Of a stretch of DNA of 6,874 bases, positions 156 through 6,561 are shown one piece after another. Source of the stretch: Desulfuromonas sp. SDB (GTDB lineage Bacteria; SDB-A); assembly GCA_001412365.1 (NCBI GenBank), contig LKUE01000202.1, forward strand, positions 1-6,874. Direction: 5' to 3'. The first letter of the stretch is position 1; each line of letters starts with the position of its first letter. The position numbers and the translations under genes were made by a program. Below the pieces are notes generated by a model that was not told the origin of the DNA, did no database searches, and worked only from the letters and a program-made list of their open reading frames with translations.

Positions 156-1313
156 ATGAGTACAGTAAAACATGATCCATTAAGAGAATTAACAGAAATT
201 CGTGATCAATTATCGTATTCAAAGAGAATTGGTTTTCTGTTTGGAGCAGGAACTTCTAAATCTATGGGTATTTCAGATATTTCTGGATTAACTAAACTGA
301 TTGAAGAAAAAATATCAAAAGACCTAAGTCCAAAATTAGAAAAAGTTAAAGCACAATTAAATCCAGACCAAAAACATATAGAAGGTATATTGAACCAAAC
401 TAGACTGATAAGACAAATTACATGTGATTCTAAAGATAAATCATTTGATGGAATAAATGGTGAAGAAGCTAAAAACCTTGATAAGTCAATTTGCGATAAA
501 ATTTATAATATTATTTCAGAGGAAGAAGAAAAATCTGATGTTAGAACTGCTAAGAAGTTTATAAGATGGTTGAATTGGTTATCAAGAGATTATCCAAAAG
601 AGATTTTTACAACTAACTATGATTTAATTTTTGAGAAATCTTTTGAAGATTTATTTATTCCCTTCTTTGATGGTTTTATTGGTTCACATGAACCATTTTT
701 TGCTTATCAGACAATTGAAAATACTACAACATATGATAGACCTCCTATTTCTTGGATTCGTCTTTGGAAATTACATGGTTCTTTAGGATGGTTCTGGAAA
801 AAAGGAGAAAATGATAAAAGTGATAGAGTGATTAGGTTAGCTGCTGGTTCAAAAGAGAATTATCCAGATTCTGAATTAGTAATTTATCCTTCAAAAGATA
901 AATATGAGTCATCAAGAAAACAACCATTCACCAGCTATTTTGACAGACTAAAAGAATTTCTATTAGATGGTGAAGGTATTTTTATTATTAATGGGTATTC
1001 CTTTGCCGATGAACATATTAATGAAGTAATATTTAATTCACTAAATCAAAATAATAGAATTCATGCAATAGTATTTTTTTATAGTGATAAATCACTAAAA
1101 CGAATAATTGAATCAAACAAGAACATTCCTAATTTTACTTTAATCAGCCCTTCGCAAGCATCTATTTCAGGAATCGTTGGAGAATGGGAACTCAACAAGG
1201 AAAATGAGATACTAAGTCCATTTTGGAATAAAGATCAGAAATGCTTAACCATTGGAGATTTCAAGCATATGGTAGATTTCTTTATTTTATGTTCTGGAAT
1301 GAAAGAAGACTAA
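156..1313 (+). CDS. SIR2-family NADase-like effector (SIR2-HerA type)
   Basis: This 385-residue protein has a SIR2 Rossmann-like fold. The motifs seen, in order, are GAGTS at 30-34 (NAD-binding loop), TTNYD at 152-156 (the TxNxD motif, with N154 and D156), LHGS with H207 as the candidate catalytic histidine, and GYSFADEHI at 280-288 near the C-terminal edge of the fold. The paired CxxC zinc ligands of deacetylase sirtuins are absent, as is usual for defence SIR2 proteins that hydrolyse NAD+ rather than deacylate protein. No signal peptide or membrane segment is seen, so it should be cytoplasmic. Size and position directly before herA match the two-gene SIR2-HerA anti-phage systems, in which SIR2 subunits assemble on a HerA hexamer. 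NAD+ depletion on phage infection is therefore the expected outcome, by family analogy. The ATG at 156 has no Shine-Dalgarno sequence, like its neighbours; the GAGTS loop lies 30 residues in, which fits this start. All key residues are intact, so it should be active. Confidence 0.9.
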   Translation: MSTVKHDPLRELTEIRDQLSYSKRIGFLFGAGTSKSMGISDISGLTKLIEEKISKDLSPKLEKVKAQLNPDQKHIEGILNQTRLIRQITCDSKDKSFDGINGEEAKNLDKSICDKIYNIISEEEEKSDVRTAKKFIRWLNWLSRDYPKEIFTTNYDLIFEKSFEDLFIPFFDGFIGSHEPFFAYQTIENTTTYDRPPISWIRLWKLHGSLGWFWKKGENDKSDRVIRLAAGSKENYPDSELVIYPSKDKYESSRKQPFTSYFDRLKEFLLDGEGIFIINGYSFADEHINEVIFNSLNQNNRIHAIVFFYSDKSLKRIIESNKNIPNFTLISPSQASISGIVGEWELNKENEILSPFWNKDQKCLTIGDFKHMVDFFILCSGMKED

Positions 1314-1320
1314 CAACCAA

Positions 1321-3111
1321 ATGAGAAAAGACATAACATACTTGGGAAGAGTGATAAGTGTCAATAGTGGAAATGTTGAAATTGAAATTTCAAAGGAAAT
1401 TCCTTCCGCAGCTCCAATTATTGAAGGTAGATTATATAAAGTAGGACAAATTGGTACATTTGTTAAATTTCCAATTGGCAGCCTAACTCTATATGGAATA
1501 GTATCTTCGGTAAGTAATTCTCCATCTTCACTTGAGCAATCTTCTTACGAACCTAATTATGGCTTTAGATTTCTACAAGTTCAATTAATTGGAGAAAAAC
1601 TTGGAAATGAAAAATTTGAAAAAGGAGTTGGAACATATCCAACAATTAATGATCAAGTGCATATTGTAACTGAAGATGATCTAAGATTAATTTACGGAGA
1701 CAAGAAAGATGGTTTTATTGAGATTGGAAAGCATTCCTCATCAGAAAATCTTCCTGTATATATTGATACACACGACTTGGTTTTAAGACATTCTGCTATT
1801 TTAGGATCAACAGGAAGTGGCAAATCAAATACGACAGCTAATATTATCAAAAGAATTCTTAATGAGTATGAAGGTTCAAGAGTCGTATTAATTGATCCCC
1901 ATGGAGAATATTCATCTGCTTTTCCAGATATGTCAAAAGTTTTCAAAATAAATTCTAAAGAAAATCCCTTATGTATACCTTTTTGGGCAATGACATTTGA
2001 TGAATTATCATTTTTTTTAGTTGGTCGACCTGAGGGCCAGGAACAACCTGCTGATAAGAGATTAAGAGAAAAAATTATTGACCTAAAGAAAAAAAGTGCG
2101 GATAGTTTGAAAGCAGGCAAGATAGATGAACTATACATTACTGCTGATTCACCAGTTCCATTTGATATTAAAAAAATGTGGCATGATTTCAATAGAGAAG
2201 TGTATGGTACATATAGCACTGCTGTAAAAGATGAACAAACATTAGATACAGAAGAACTAGAAAATGCAGGAGATCCTAAAAATCTTATTCCTGCTAAGTT
2301 TAAACCTTATGCAATGGGAAGTGAAGCTCCTTATAAATCGAAAAATGAAGTCATGTATTCTTATGAGGCTAAAATCCTTTCACGCCTGAAAGATAACCGT
2401 TATAAATTTATGTTTGATCCTAATGATTATTTTGATGCAAGTAGCCAAAACGACATTGATCATTTGTTCAGAAGTTGGATTGAACATGATAAGCGTTTGA
2501 CGATTTTAAACTTAAATGGTGTTCCATTTGAACTAATAGATATCTCTGTTGGATTAATCAGTAGAATGATATACGATTCTATGTATTGGGGAAGGTTTGA
2601 AACTTATACAGGAAGAAGCAGACCAGTTTTAATGATTTATGAAGAAGCACATTCTTATTTGCTAAAATCTGAACATAGCAATCACATATATGGTTATGCA
2701 AGAAAATCTGTTGAGAAAATCTTCAAAGAGGGTAGGAAATTTGGAGTTGGATCAATGGTCGTAACTCAAAGACCATCAGAAATATCTGAAACCATTTTAG
2801 CACAAGTGGGTACATTTATTACTCTTCGCTTAACAAATAGTGGTGATAAAGGTACAGTTCAATCCTCAGCACCAAATAATATGAGTAGCCTTATAGAATT
2901 ATTGCCATCATTAAGAGTTGGAGAAGCAATTATTGTCGGAGAAGCTATAAATATTCCATCACGGATTAGAATCGAATTGGTGGAACCTAGACCATCTAGT
3001 AATGATCCTGAACTTGTTGCGGCATGGAAAAAGAAATTTAATCCTAATGATAATAATTATAAACAAATTGTTACAGCAATTAGGGAGCAAAAATCAATAC
3101 AAAAAAAATAA
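1321..3111 (+). CDS. HerA/FtsK-family hexameric ATPase of SIR2-HerA system
   Basis: This 596-residue protein is a HerA-type motor ATPase. Residues 1 to about 115 form the beta-rich HAS-barrel typical of HerA. Walker A is GSTGSGKS at 162-169 (K168), followed by DPHGEY at 192-197. Walker B is VLMIYEEAH at 436-444 with the acidic pair E441-E442. The HerA-specific stretch FKEGRKFGVGSMVVTQRPSEIS (about 468-489) includes the TQRP sensor. The C-terminal segment about 533-552 (LRVGEAIIVGEA, then a basic strand) is also family-typical. The variable region at about 230-390 between the Walker motifs is common in bacterial HerA proteins. In SIR2-HerA systems the HerA hexamer scaffolds and activates the SIR2 subunits and may translocate DNA. 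It starts 7 nt after the SIR2 stop and is probably translationally coupled. Here it is not paired with NurA, its housekeeping partner in archaea, which supports the defence reading. The gene ends in an A8 run next to the downstream KTSC gene. Confidence 0.92.
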   Translation: MRKDITYLGRVISVNSGNVEIEISKEIPSAAPIIEGRLYKVGQIGTFVKFPIGSLTLYGIVSSVSNSPSSLEQSSYEPNYGFRFLQVQLIGEKLGNEKFEKGVGTYPTINDQVHIVTEDDLRLIYGDKKDGFIEIGKHSSSENLPVYIDTHDLVLRHSAILGSTGSGKSNTTANIIKRILNEYEGSRVVLIDPHGEYSSAFPDMSKVFKINSKENPLCIPFWAMTFDELSFFLVGRPEGQEQPADKRLREKIIDLKKKSADSLKAGKIDELYITADSPVPFDIKKMWHDFNREVYGTYSTAVKDEQTLDTEELENAGDPKNLIPAKFKPYAMGSEAPYKSKNEVMYSYEAKILSRLKDNRYKFMFDPNDYFDASSQNDIDHLFRSWIEHDKRLTILNLNGVPFELIDISVGLISRMIYDSMYWGRFETYTGRSRPVLMIYEEAHSYLLKSEHSNHIYGYARKSVEKIFKEGRKFGVGSMVVTQRPSEISETILAQVGTFITLRLTNSGDKGTVQSSAPNNMSSLIELLPSLRVGEAIIVGEAINIPSRIRIELVEPRPSSNDPELVAAWKKKFNPNDNNYKQIVTAIREQKSIQKK

Positions 3112-3115
3112 TATT

Positions 3116-3328
3116 ATGGAAATGATACAAGTTAAATCTTCAAATCTTGCAGCAGTTGGTTATGATCCAAACAGTGCAGTTTTAAAAGTTGAATTTTTAA
3201 ATTGTAGAATTTATGAATATTATGATGTCCCTCAGTATATTTTCGATGAGTTATTAGCAGCTGACTCAAAGGGAAAGTACGCTGCATCAAACATATATAA
3301 GAATTATAACCAGCAAAGAATTTTATAA
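3116..3328 (+). CDS. KTSC-domain small protein
   Basis: This 70-residue protein consists almost entirely of one KTSC domain, named for its occurrence at the lysyl-tRNA synthetase C-terminus. The sequence shows the family pattern: SSNLAAVGYDP at 8-18, a strand LKVEF, then the central YxY motif Y33-E34-Y35 followed by YDVP. A short helix follows (IFDELLAADSKGKY), and a basic, Asn/Tyr-rich tail. The family function is unknown; RNA binding has been suggested. The ATG at 3116 is 4 nt after the herA stop and gives a protein of normal KTSC length; ATG 3122 is an in-frame alternative. The reading frame extends upstream to 3002, but that part overlaps herA and is not KTSC-like. The stop lies 1 nt before the DUF2130 start, so these two genes are tightly coupled. 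Its role here is unknown: a nucleic-acid sensor, a small accessory subunit or a partner of DUF2130 are all possible. Confidence 0.8.
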   Translation: MEMIQVKSSNLAAVGYDPNSAVLKVEFLNCRIYEYYDVPQYIFDELLAADSKGKYAASNIYKNYNQQRIL

Positions 3329-3329
3329 A

Positions 3330-4601
3330 ATGGAAGGAAAAACTAGAATAAAGTGCCCAAATTGTGGTACTTTCATAGATGTTCAAGATATTCTTGCACA
3401 TCAATTAGAGGAAGAAATCCAGAAAAAATATCAGGATCAACTTTCCGAACAAAAAAAGAAATATGACTCAGATTTGATTCAACTTAATAATGCTAAGAGA
3501 GAATTTGAAGAGCAAAAACGTATGGAGAATGAAAGATTTAACAAACTCCTTGATAGTAAGATAAAAGAAGAGAAAAAAAACCTTGAGGAAAAAATTAAGA
3601 TAAAGTTTCTAGAAGAACAATCTGAACAATTTCAAGCATTACAAAAAGAGCTTAATGAGAAATCTGAACAGATCAAAGAACTGAACAGAACAAAAGCTGA
3701 GATTGAAAAACTGAAACGTGAAAAAGGGGAATTAAAAACAGCAGCAGAAGCAGAAGCACAAAAAAAACTTAATGAGTTACTTTTATTGGAACGAAAGAAA
3801 ATAAGGAAAAGTGAAGAAGAAAAAACTGAATTGAAATTCAAAGAACTTCAAAAACAACTTGAAGATCAAAAGAAACTGACTGAAGAAATGAAACGTAAGC
3901 AGGAACAAGGGTCAATGCAATTACAAGGTGAGGTTCAAGAATTAGCAATTAAAGAATGGCTTTCATTCCAATTTCCTTTAGATACTATTGAGGAAATTAA
4001 AAAAGGAGTAAGAGGTGGCGATTGTTTACAAATCGTTAATACAAGAAGTCGTCAGAATTGTGGAAAAATATACTATGAAAGTAAGCGTACAAAAGACTTT
4101 CAACCAAGTTGGATTGAAAAATTCAAGGCAGATATGAGAATTAAAAGTGCTGACATTGGTGTTCTTGTTACTGATGCAATGCCATCAGACATGGAACGCA
4201 TGGGAATGCAAAACGGAATTTGGATTTGTAATTACAATGAATTCAAAGGTTTATGTTCTGTATTAAGAGAATCAATCATACAATTAAGCCTGGTATTGCA
4301 ATCACAAGAAAATAAAGGGGATAAAATGCACTTGTTGTATGATTTTCTAACCAGTAATAGTTTTCGCATGCAAATTGAAGCAATTGTTGAGGGATTCTCT
4401 TCAATTAAATCTGCATTGGATAGTGAAAAAAGATCTATGCAACGTATCTGGAAAGAAAGAGAAAAACAAATTGAAAAGGTTATCTATAACACAATTGATA
4501 TGTATGGTTCAATTAAGGGAATTGCAGGAAATGCAATACAGTCAGTTAAAGCATTAGAATTACCCGAAGGAGAAGATAATTCTGAAGAAATATCTGAATG
4601 A
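3330..4601 (+). CDS. DUF2130 coiled-coil protein, predicted PD-(D/E)XK nuclease
   Basis: This 423-residue protein belongs to the DUF2130 family and has a normal length for it. The N-terminus carries a single CPNCG knuckle (C9, C12) with no second Cys pair. Residues about 25-198 are Lys/Glu/Gln-rich heptads predicting a long coiled coil. The core then shows a PD-(D/E)XK-like pattern: E201/E204 in GEVQELAI, D231 in RGGDCLQIV, and YESKRT at 249-254 giving E250-x-K252, followed by a hydrophobic strand ADIGVLVTD at 274-282. The C-terminus has family-typical stretches LLYDFLTSNSFR (about 335-346), MQRIWKEREKQIE (370-382) and MYGSIKGIAG (391-400). The layout resembles RmuC, a coiled coil plus nuclease fold. 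DNA cleavage is inferred; the family lacks a firm biochemical function as far as I know. It starts 1 nt after the KTSC stop, and its own TGA is overlapped by an ATG (ATGA at 4598-4601) that is out of frame with the next gene. Confidence 0.85.
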   Translation: MEGKTRIKCPNCGTFIDVQDILAHQLEEEIQKKYQDQLSEQKKKYDSDLIQLNNAKREFEEQKRMENERFNKLLDSKIKEEKKNLEEKIKIKFLEEQSEQFQALQKELNEKSEQIKELNRTKAEIEKLKREKGELKTAAEAEAQKKLNELLLLERKKIRKSEEEKTELKFKELQKQLEDQKKLTEEMKRKQEQGSMQLQGEVQELAIKEWLSFQFPLDTIEEIKKGVRGGDCLQIVNTRSRQNCGKIYYESKRTKDFQPSWIEKFKADMRIKSADIGVLVTDAMPSDMERMGMQNGIWICNYNEFKGLCSVLRESIIQLSLVLQSQENKGDKMHLLYDFLTSNSFRMQIEAIVEGFSSIKSALDSEKRSMQRIWKEREKQIEKVIYNTIDMYGSIKGIAGNAIQSVKALELPEGEDNSEEISE

Positions 4602-4636
4602 ATACAATATTCAAATTGATAAATCGCACAAATTGA
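4598..4636 (+). other. Out-of-frame ATGA start at DUF2130/nuclease junction
   Basis: ATG 4598-4600 overlaps the DUF2130 stop TGA 4599-4601, the arrangement usually seen for translationally coupled genes. Its reading frame lasts only 12 codons and ends at TGA 4634-4636. The long downstream frame is offset by one base: 38 nt separate ATG 4598 from the in-frame codon at 4636, where 39 would join them. One missing base, or a -1 ribosomal shift, would link this ATG to the downstream protein. No classic X XXY YYZ slippery heptamer is visible at the join, so a sequence or assembly deletion, or simply a different start, is at least as likely. Confidence 0.45.
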
Positions 4637-6561
4637 AAGACTCTTATAATATTTTTAATGTTTTATTTGATCCTGATCTCATGCAAAAAGCTACCAAAAT
4701 AACCGAAAAATTTTTCTTTGAAGGTCGGGAACGTTACTTTCAAAACGAGATCAAAACCAGCAAAGAAACGTATAAATGTTTAAAACAATATCTTGATTTC
4801 TTGATGAGACAGGTTAAAAAAAGGATGAGTCAACATTCAAAATATAGTCTTATTTACTATTTCCGACGTATATTGAGTAACATGTTACAAACATATGACA
4901 ATACTGAATGGAAACAGGAAGAAATAAAAACTTTTAAGACCGAGTTATTATGGTTTGTTTGGTTTTCTAACAGAATTACACTTGCAGCTATAAAATATGG
5001 TCGTTCTAGTTTAGATGATCTGCAAAATTTTTCTTTCAAACATAAAGGTTTTTCAGAATATATTGAATTGAATCAATTGACTTCAAAATATAGTGTAGAT
5101 TTACATGTAACATTATCTCTGATGTGGGAATGGGATAAAATAAGATATTGTATGAAAAGATTAGCTAGAGGTGGAAAATTTATTTGGCGAAATAGAAATA
5201 AATTTGAATTTGATATAATAATGGAACCAAATATTAAAAATCTTGTTAATATATTTGATACCCGAGTAAATTCAACAGACAATCTATTAAACATTCAAGG
5301 TTCATGGGCTCCTATGATAACAAGTTTTGAATTCCCACTACCTTCATCTAGAGGTATATATAAACCTCTTCATATTTGGCCGAAAGCATTCTCCATTAAT
5401 AGTGGTGCTCTATCTTATTATCTTCCAATAGTGTTGACATTATTGCCAAATATTAGTAATCAAGGTAGTGATTTAGGATGGCGAGATCCTACAACAAATC
5501 AACTGATTCCTTCTCCTTCTTGGATATTTCATTGGTATCGATTAGATTTTATACTACCTAGAATTGAATTATTTCGTGGTGTTATCAAAAAATATCTAGA
5601 ATTCTCTGGACGTACAAATTATGAACCAGAAGATTTGATCTTAACCCTATCTGCAATAACACAATATTCAATAAACGCAGGACTTAATAATGATAAATGT
5701 TGGTATCAAATCTTTTCATATGGTTATTCTATTTGGAATGATCCATATGAGTTATTAAAACATAAAGTTTTACCGGAATATAGAAACTTAAAAAAAATTT
5801 CTCTTGGTAAAACTTCATCAAAAGGAGATTGGGAATCACTAAAATCAGTTATTGAAGATATCAAATGGAATGAAATACAATATAAAAACCTCAATATATT
5901 GAGATACTCACCTATTAATCTTATTTTACCAATTGACAAAAATATATGGCTCATTGATTGGTCTTTAATGCTTCATGTAATTTTAGATTTGACGAAATCT
6001 TATGGAAGAATATTTGGTACTGTTGCGATTCTTAAAGGATTTGAACTTGAACGAACCCTTTCTGAATATTTTAAATCCAATTTTCAGACATTGGGAATTT
6101 CTTTGTGGTGGTTGGGTCAAGGAGCGAAAAATAAAATTAGATTTCATGCTGGGGGAGTGCGAGATATTGATATTGGTATTATTGTGGATGATCATCTTCT
6201 AATACTCGAAGTAAAAGCATATTCAGGACGATGGGATTTATATCTTAATCCTGATCCTAATATGTTAAAGAAAAGATGGGAAAAAAAAATTAAACCGGCT
6301 ATAAATCAGGTAGATACACTTTCAGAACGTTTAAGTATTGAAATAGAAGGAAAAAACTTCAAAATACCGTGTGATGTGAGATGGGTTGTTCCTATTGTTT
6401 GTAGTCCATTTGTTGAATGGATCCCATCATATAACCAAAAATGGTGGCTTTATAAAAATATCCCAAGAGTTTGCACACCAGATGAAATATTTGAGATAAT
6501 TGAACAGATAAAAAAAGGGAACTCACCTAATTATAAATTACCTGTTGCCAGAACTAGCTAA
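4633..6561 (+). CDS. Large unrecognised protein with C-terminal NERD-like PD-(D/E)XK nuclease
   Basis: This 642-residue protein (counted from TTG 4633) has two parts. Residues 1 to about 455 match no family I recognise; they look mostly alpha-helical, rich in Trp, Tyr and Lys, with no signal peptide or convincing membrane helix. Residues about 457-600 show a PD-(D/E)XK restriction-endonuclease-like core: E471/E473 in GFELER, D511 and D513 in RDIDIGI, LEVKA with E526-x-K528, and a later helix with Q559. The order E...D...ExK...Q resembles NERD-type nuclease domains. The catalytic set looks intact, so it may cut DNA or RNA, and the N-terminal part may be the sensor or targeting module; this is inference. 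The start is uncertain: TTG 4633 is 31 nt after the DUF2130 stop, ATG 4681 would give 626 residues, and the frame stays open upstream to 4558 without ATG or GTG. AAGGAG at 4567-4572, inside DUF2130, precedes a CTG at 4582, but the other genes do not use Shine-Dalgarno sites. The gene ends with tandem stops, TAA TAG. Confidence 0.75.
   Translation: MKDSYNIFNVLFDPDLMQKATKITEKFFFEGRERYFQNEIKTSKETYKCLKQYLDFLMRQVKKRMSQHSKYSLIYYFRRILSNMLQTYDNTEWKQEEIKTFKTELLWFVWFSNRITLAAIKYGRSSLDDLQNFSFKHKGFSEYIELNQLTSKYSVDLHVTLSLMWEWDKIRYCMKRLARGGKFIWRNRNKFEFDIIMEPNIKNLVNIFDTRVNSTDNLLNIQGSWAPMITSFEFPLPSSRGIYKPLHIWPKAFSINSGALSYYLPIVLTLLPNISNQGSDLGWRDPTTNQLIPSPSWIFHWYRLDFILPRIELFRGVIKKYLEFSGRTNYEPEDLILTLSAITQYSINAGLNNDKCWYQIFSYGYSIWNDPYELLKHKVLPEYRNLKKISLGKTSSKGDWESLKSVIEDIKWNEIQYKNLNILRYSPINLILPIDKNIWLIDWSLMLHVILDLTKSYGRIFGTVAILKGFELERTLSEYFKSNFQTLGISLWWLGQGAKNKIRFHAGGVRDIDIGIIVDDHLLILEVKAYSGRWDLYLNPDPNMLKKRWEKKIKPAINQVDTLSERLSIEIEGKNFKIPCDVRWVVPIVCSPFVEWIPSYNQKWWLYKNIPRVCTPDEIFEIIEQIKKGNSPNYKLPVARTS

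What the first reader, a model, noticed from the sequence alone, without database searches (positions are those of the whole stretch)
4633..6561. Unrecognised ~455-residue N-terminal region fused to an intact PD-(D/E)XK core
The C-terminal domain keeps E471/E473, D511/D513, E526-x-K528 and Q559, in the order of NERD-like nucleases, while the larger N-terminal part matches nothing I recognise. In defence proteins such a region is often the sensor or targeting module, so this may be a new effector architecture.
Basis: partly seen in the sequence, partly recalled or inferred. Interest (0 to 1): 0.62.

Follow-up and report, generated by a model that had tools for sequence, protein, structure and literature searches.

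The report
Orphan protein ending in NERD nuclease
The gene encodes a likely DNA-cutting enzyme of the NERD type joined to a large front part that resembles nothing in the databases searched, and it sits behind a known anti-virus gene set in an uncultured bacterium, so it is a plausible but untested new defence nuclease.

Summary
The frame 4633-6561 is open for 642 codons, is coding by codon statistics, and carries E471, E473, D511, D513, E526, K528 and Q559 as stated. Residues ~500-630 are a NERD-type PD-(D/E)XK domain: Pfam NERD E 8.7e-5; profile comparison 94.7% probability against at most 6.7% for 60 shuffles. D513, E526-x-K528 and Q559 align with conserved NERD residues; E471/E473 lie outside the aligned part. 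No confident 3D model could be made (pLDDT 38), so the fold is untested.

Residues 1-455 match nothing in Pfam, PADLOC, NCBIfam, PHROGs, PDB sequences, plasmids, phages or ~760 whole genomes. In the NERD proteins inspected the domain never follows ~460 residues.

The gene ends a tight five-gene run: SIR2, HerA, KTSC, DUF2130, this gene. SIR2-HerA is a known defence module; with KTSC it occurs without DUF2130 or this gene on three plasmids. DUF2130 recurs beside various defence-type genes. A defence nuclease is the best reading, by association only. The 'sensor' role of the N-terminus and any link to SIR2-HerA are inference. I rate it a new architecture of a known nuclease kind, seen once.

The parts
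4633..6561 (+). ORF X, 642 aa, TTG start: orphan N-terminal region plus C-terminal NERD nuclease domain
4633..5997 (+). residues 1-455 of X: unrecognised region, basic (pI 9.3), 17 Trp, no strong transmembrane segment
   Evidence: no significant match
6022..6540 (+). NERD-type PD-(D/E)XK domain of X, about residues 464-636 (profile-aligned part about 506-629)
   Evidence: Pfam NERD, hhalign 94.7%
6160..6222 (+). core motif R510-D511-I-D513 ... E526-V-K528-A-Y530
   Evidence: pattern match; same spacing in NERD proteins L020, L021, L025
6307..6309 (+). codon of Q559, aligned with the conserved Gln of NERD domains
6043..6051 (+). codons of E471-L-E473, possible first-helix acidic residues; not covered by the profile match
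3330..4601 (+). DUF2130 protein with coiled coil and a conserved G-x-D ... YESK-TK block; immediate upstream neighbour
   Evidence: Pfam 6.7e-76; alignment block
3116..3328 (+). KTSC domain protein, third gene of the SIR2-HerA run
   Evidence: Pfam 5.3e-22; same place on plasmids
1321..3111 (+). HerA ATPase of the SIR2-HerA defence module
   Evidence: PADLOC HerA 2.2e-155; 58-59% identity to plasmid HerA
156..1313 (+). SIR2 protein of the SIR2-HerA defence module
   Evidence: PADLOC SIR2 1.8e-117; 47% identity to a plasmid SIR2

Best explanation
The gene encodes a DNase of the NERD branch of PD-(D/E)XK enzymes (D513, E526 and K528 bind a divalent metal ion and cut DNA) carried on a large N-terminal region that most likely supplies nucleic-acid or partner binding and keeps the nuclease in check. 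It lies directly behind a SIR2-HerA-KTSC module and a DUF2130 nuclease-like protein, and most likely acts in antiviral or anti-plasmid defence by degrading DNA once triggered. Shown by sequence: the NERD-type core and its conserved residues, the lack of detectable relatives of the N-terminus, the gene order, the defence identity of SIR2-HerA. Inferred: metal-dependent DNA cleavage, regulation by the N-terminus, a defence role, and any cooperation with the neighbours.
For: Pfam NERD on the C-terminus E 8.7e-5. hhalign to a NERD alignment 94.7% over 121 columns with D513, E526, K528 and Q559 in register, N-terminus 0.3%; shuffles at most 6.7%; DUF2130 0.5%. A genome-wide scan with X's spaced core motif returned three proteins above the Pfam NERD cut-off and one Mrr-type endonuclease among 24 matches. 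SIR2 and HerA match PADLOC at 1.8e-117 and 2.2e-155. DUF2130 relatives lie beside OLD/GajA-like, PDC-S06, AriA-like and methyltransferase genes. The five genes are 1-31 bp apart on one strand.
Against: No second copy was found, so there is no conserved association with any neighbour. The SIR2-HerA-KTSC trio occurs without DUF2130 and X on Citrobacter, Rhizobium and E. coli plasmids. The fold is untested. NERD domains also occur in proteins with no known defence role. The contig is short and the genome is a draft with 3.9% contamination.
Confidence: 0.5

Rival explanations
1. X is a stand-alone nuclease gene that merely sits in a defence island next to SIR2-HerA-KTSC and DUF2130. It has its own trigger and no functional link to its neighbours. 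(This refines rather than excludes the best explanation.)
For: SIR2-HerA-KTSC occurs without it on three plasmids; DUF2130 has different neighbours at nine further genome loci and none is X-like or NERD.
Against: Spacing of 1-31 bp on one strand from SIR2 to X suggests co-expression.
Confidence: 0.5
2. X and DUF2130 are dedicated accessory parts of this SIR2-HerA-KTSC system, adding DNA degradation to NAD depletion.
For: Five genes in one tight run; a variant of HerA-KTSC systems with an endoDNase in place of the sirtuin has been reported (PMC9503650).
Against: No X on plasmids that carry 58%-identical HerA; no other locus with this combination was found.
Confidence: 0.15
3. X is a nuclease of a mobile element or a repair protein rather than a defence effector, its N-terminus serving DNA handling.
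For: NERD is a DNA-processing domain found in many protein contexts; a Tn3 DDE transposase model touches residues in the N-terminal half, but only at E 0.04-0.11, below cut-off.
Against: No mobile-element or repair gene in the window; neighbours are of defence type.
Confidence: 0.2
4. X is a decaying or frame-disturbed gene: the out-of-frame ATG at 4598 marks the old start and the protein is no longer made.
For: No in-frame ATG near the start; an ATGA overlap with DUF2130 in another frame closes after 12 codons.
Against: 642 codons without a stop, coding statistics intact throughout and catalytic residues kept; TTG starts are common in bacteria.
Confidence: 0.07

Closest known systems
NERD domain proteins (PF08378, PD-(D/E)XK superfamily)
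   Same: D513, E-x-K, Q559 and the span of the C-terminal domain; the RDID-x12-ExK-x-Y spacing occurs in several NERD proteins.
   Different: In 13 well-scoring NERD proteins inspected the domain starts at residue 13-221 of the open frame, and the three from the motif scan have it at the front, two of them before a helicase; in X it follows about 460 unknown residues.
Nhi (single-gene NERD nuclease-helicase, antiphage)
   Same: NERD-type nuclease listed among defence proteins (PMC10952713); Nhi nicks and unwinds DNA and is linked to phage SSB (PMC12904381).
   Different: X has no recognisable helicase domain.
PglW of the Pgl phage growth limitation system
   Same: A NERD domain within a larger defence protein (PMC9009780).
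   Different: In PglW the NERD domain is N-terminal and joined to a kinase; X has no kinase match.
TALON systems
   Same: Rare operons with a NERD-subtype PD-(D/E)XK endonuclease (PMC12458937).
   Different: They hold a YprA helicase, TPR-CSD and TBP genes; none is in this window.
SIR2-HerA (Nezha) defence system
   Same: The first two genes of the run, with KTSC third, as on three plasmids.
   Different: DUF2130 and X are absent from those relatives, so X is not a defining part.

Membership tests
NERD (PF08378) | score above Pfam's gathering cut-off (22.1 bits) | tested here: inconclusive
   C-terminal part alone 23.4 bits, whole protein 22.0 bits
NERD (PF08378) | conserved D, E-x-K and downstream Q in order and register | tested here: met
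   D513, E526, K528, Q559 in register
NERD (PF08378) | profile-profile match well above controls | tested here: met
   94.7% against at most 6.7% for 60 shuffles
NERD (PF08378) | first helix with conserved acidic residue (profile positions 1-26) | tested here: inconclusive
   Pfam match begins at profile position 27; E471/E473 not placed
NERD (PF08378) | PD-(D/E)XK fold | tested here: inconclusive
   model pLDDT 38; helix-strand-strand-strand-helix order as expected but without confidence; Foldseek empty
NERD (PF08378) | nuclease activity | not testable with these tools
   needs an assay
SIR2-HerA system | SIR2 plus HerA gene pair upstream of X | tested here: met
   genes 156-3111
SIR2-HerA system | X as a constant component | tested here: not met
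   absent from plasmid relatives
Nhi | helicase domain fused to NERD | tested here: not met
   no helicase match in X
PglW | kinase domain fused to NERD | tested here: not met
   no kinase match in X
TALON | YprA helicase, TPR-CSD and TBP genes in the operon | tested here: not met
   no such gene in the window; the contig ends 313 bp after X

The most novel reading that the evidence does not exclude
Residues 1-455 are a new recognition or regulatory module, and X with DUF2130 forms a two-nuclease extension of SIR2-HerA-KTSC, giving one operon that both depletes NAD and degrades DNA.
Probability: 0.12. Interest if true: 0.65.

Novelty: new variant of a known kind. Interest (0 to 1): 0.36.

Why it matters
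NERD nucleases recur in defence proteins, usually in front of helicases or kinases. A NERD domain behind a large unrecognised region would be a new way of aiming or restraining this nuclease. The locus also adds evidence that DUF2130 proteins are regular members of defence islands, which can be tested directly.

Tried and rejected
Relatives of X were sought by exact-peptide scans of genome contigs and viral contigs, tblastn of plasmids and phages, about 760 whole genomes, degenerate motif probes in viral contigs (made-up sequences served only as probes) and a spaced core-motif scan of viral and genome contigs: none gave an N-terminal relative. The G490 hit at E 0.005 lies in an 87-residue frame with a stop inside the match: chance. 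The five viral motif matches are unrelated proteins or out of frame. AF2 of the full protein (pLDDT 33) and of the C-terminus with three NERD proteins (pLDDT 38) were unusable; Foldseek on the latter gave nothing. DUF6710, BnzA, Tn3 DDE and phrog hits to the N-terminus are sub-threshold and were rejected. That X is a regular part of a described SIR2-HerA system was rejected because plasmid relatives lack it. DUF2130 neighbours in nine further genomes hold no X-like or NERD gene. Promoter and terminator scans did not exceed shuffles.

Full report
What is there. The window is a complete short contig (G000:C202) of a bacterial draft genome: 98.7% complete, 3.9% contamination, in a phylum with four held genomes; its 16S fits the bacterial model best. 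Five genes lie on the + strand in one run: SIR2 156-1313, HerA 1321-3111, KTSC about 3116-3328, DUF2130 3330-4601 and the gene of the finding, X, 4633-6561. After X there are 313 bases without a recognised gene up to the contig end.

The observation. X is open for 642 codons. The chance of that at this composition is about 2e-26, and frame-specific codon scores favour its frame in both halves. The start is uncertain: there is no ATG in frame near 4633. An ATG at 4598 overlaps the DUF2130 stop but is in another frame and closes after 12 codons. TTG 4633 is the first usable start; the other genes of the window show no clear Shine-Dalgarno either.

The C-terminal domain. Pfam gives NERD at E 8.7e-5 for residues 456-642 (23.4 bits, cut-off 22.1) and 22.0 bits for the whole protein. 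An alignment of 16 NERD domains from independent genomes matches the C-terminus with 94.7% probability over 121 columns; the N-terminus scores 0.3%, 60 shuffled C-termini reach at most 6.7%, and the neighbouring DUF2130 scores 0.5%. D513, E526, K528 and Q559 are in register with the conserved positions. D511 is shared only with a subset of NERD proteins. E471/E473 could not be placed by alignment. A scan of 84,980 species genomes with the spaced core motif returned 24 stretches. Three are NERD proteins above the Pfam cut-off and one is an Mrr-type endonuclease; many of the rest are chance. So the core motif is one that real nucleases use. The structure could not be tested: the models have pLDDT 33 and 38, and the fold search with the second model found nothing, as expected from its quality.

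The N-terminal region. Residues 1-455 are basic (pI 9.3), contain 17 tryptophans and have no strong transmembrane segment. No library recognises them. No relative was found by tblastn in plasmids and phages or in about 760 whole genomes. The scans of the large collections use short peptide patterns and would miss distant relatives, so absence there is weak evidence. In the 13 NERD proteins above 43 bits that were inspected from the 145-genome survey, the domain starts at residue 13-221 of the open frame; none has about 460 residues in front.

Context. SIR2 and HerA match PADLOC's models at 1.8e-117 and 2.2e-155. HerA is 58-59% identical to genes on enterobacterial plasmids. On Citrobacter, Rhizobium and E. 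coli plasmids SIR2-HerA is followed directly by KTSC and then by unrelated genes. A review reports HerA coupled with KTSC and an endoDNase in place of the sirtuin (PMC9503650). So the first three genes are a module that occurs on its own, and X is not a constant part of it. DUF2130 relatives in several further genomes and on an Aliarcobacter plasmid adjoin different defence-type genes: OLD/GajA-like ATPases, PDC-S06, an AriA-like ATPase with NDT, methyltransferases, and an ATP-dependent endonuclease with a UvrD helicase. Other DUF2130 loci have ordinary neighbours. None of the nine genome loci holds an X-like gene. The locus therefore looks like a stack of defence genes.

Mechanism. The likeliest reading is a metal-dependent DNase whose large N-terminal part binds nucleic acid or a partner and restrains the nuclease, serving antiviral or anti-plasmid defence. 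The nuclease assignment is well supported by sequence. The defence role rests on neighbours, and the role of the N-terminus is inference. Whether X works with SIR2-HerA or alone cannot be told from one copy; I favour its acting on its own.

Verdict. The finding is real and correctly described at sequence level. It is a new architecture of a known nuclease kind, represented so far by one protein. A deep metagenomic search should come before any experiment.

Noticed in passing
window 3330-4601; L006, L085, L086, L088, L089: DUF2130 proteins sit directly beside varied defence-type genes (OLD/GajA-like, PDC-S06, AriA-like plus NDT, methyltransferases) in unrelated bacteria and carry a conserved G-x-D ... 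YESK-TK block, suggesting a recurrent defence-island nuclease.
   Followed up: partly
window 3116-3328; L005 8778-8990; L011 8832-9041; L012 8824-9033: A KTSC gene directly follows HerA in this SIR2-HerA locus and in all three plasmid relatives opened, so it looks like a regular third gene of this SIR2-HerA subtype.
   Followed up: partly
window 4598-4636: An ATGA overlap with the DUF2130 stop opens a 12-codon frame that closes just where X begins in another frame; either X starts at TTG 4633 or there is a frame change or assembly error at its start.
   Followed up: partly
G000:C172:13362-13565 (L003): The only other NERD-model match of the genome is a 127-residue frame that looks like a YraN/UPF0102 protein (from memory, not tested); the NERD model picks up many such short frames at E about 1e-6 to 1e-8 in the survey.
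   Followed up: no
L007 2662-17257: On the Sulfurimonas aquatica plasmid the DUF2130 gene lies among Fic-family genes, a caspase-family gene and unknown genes.
   Followed up: no
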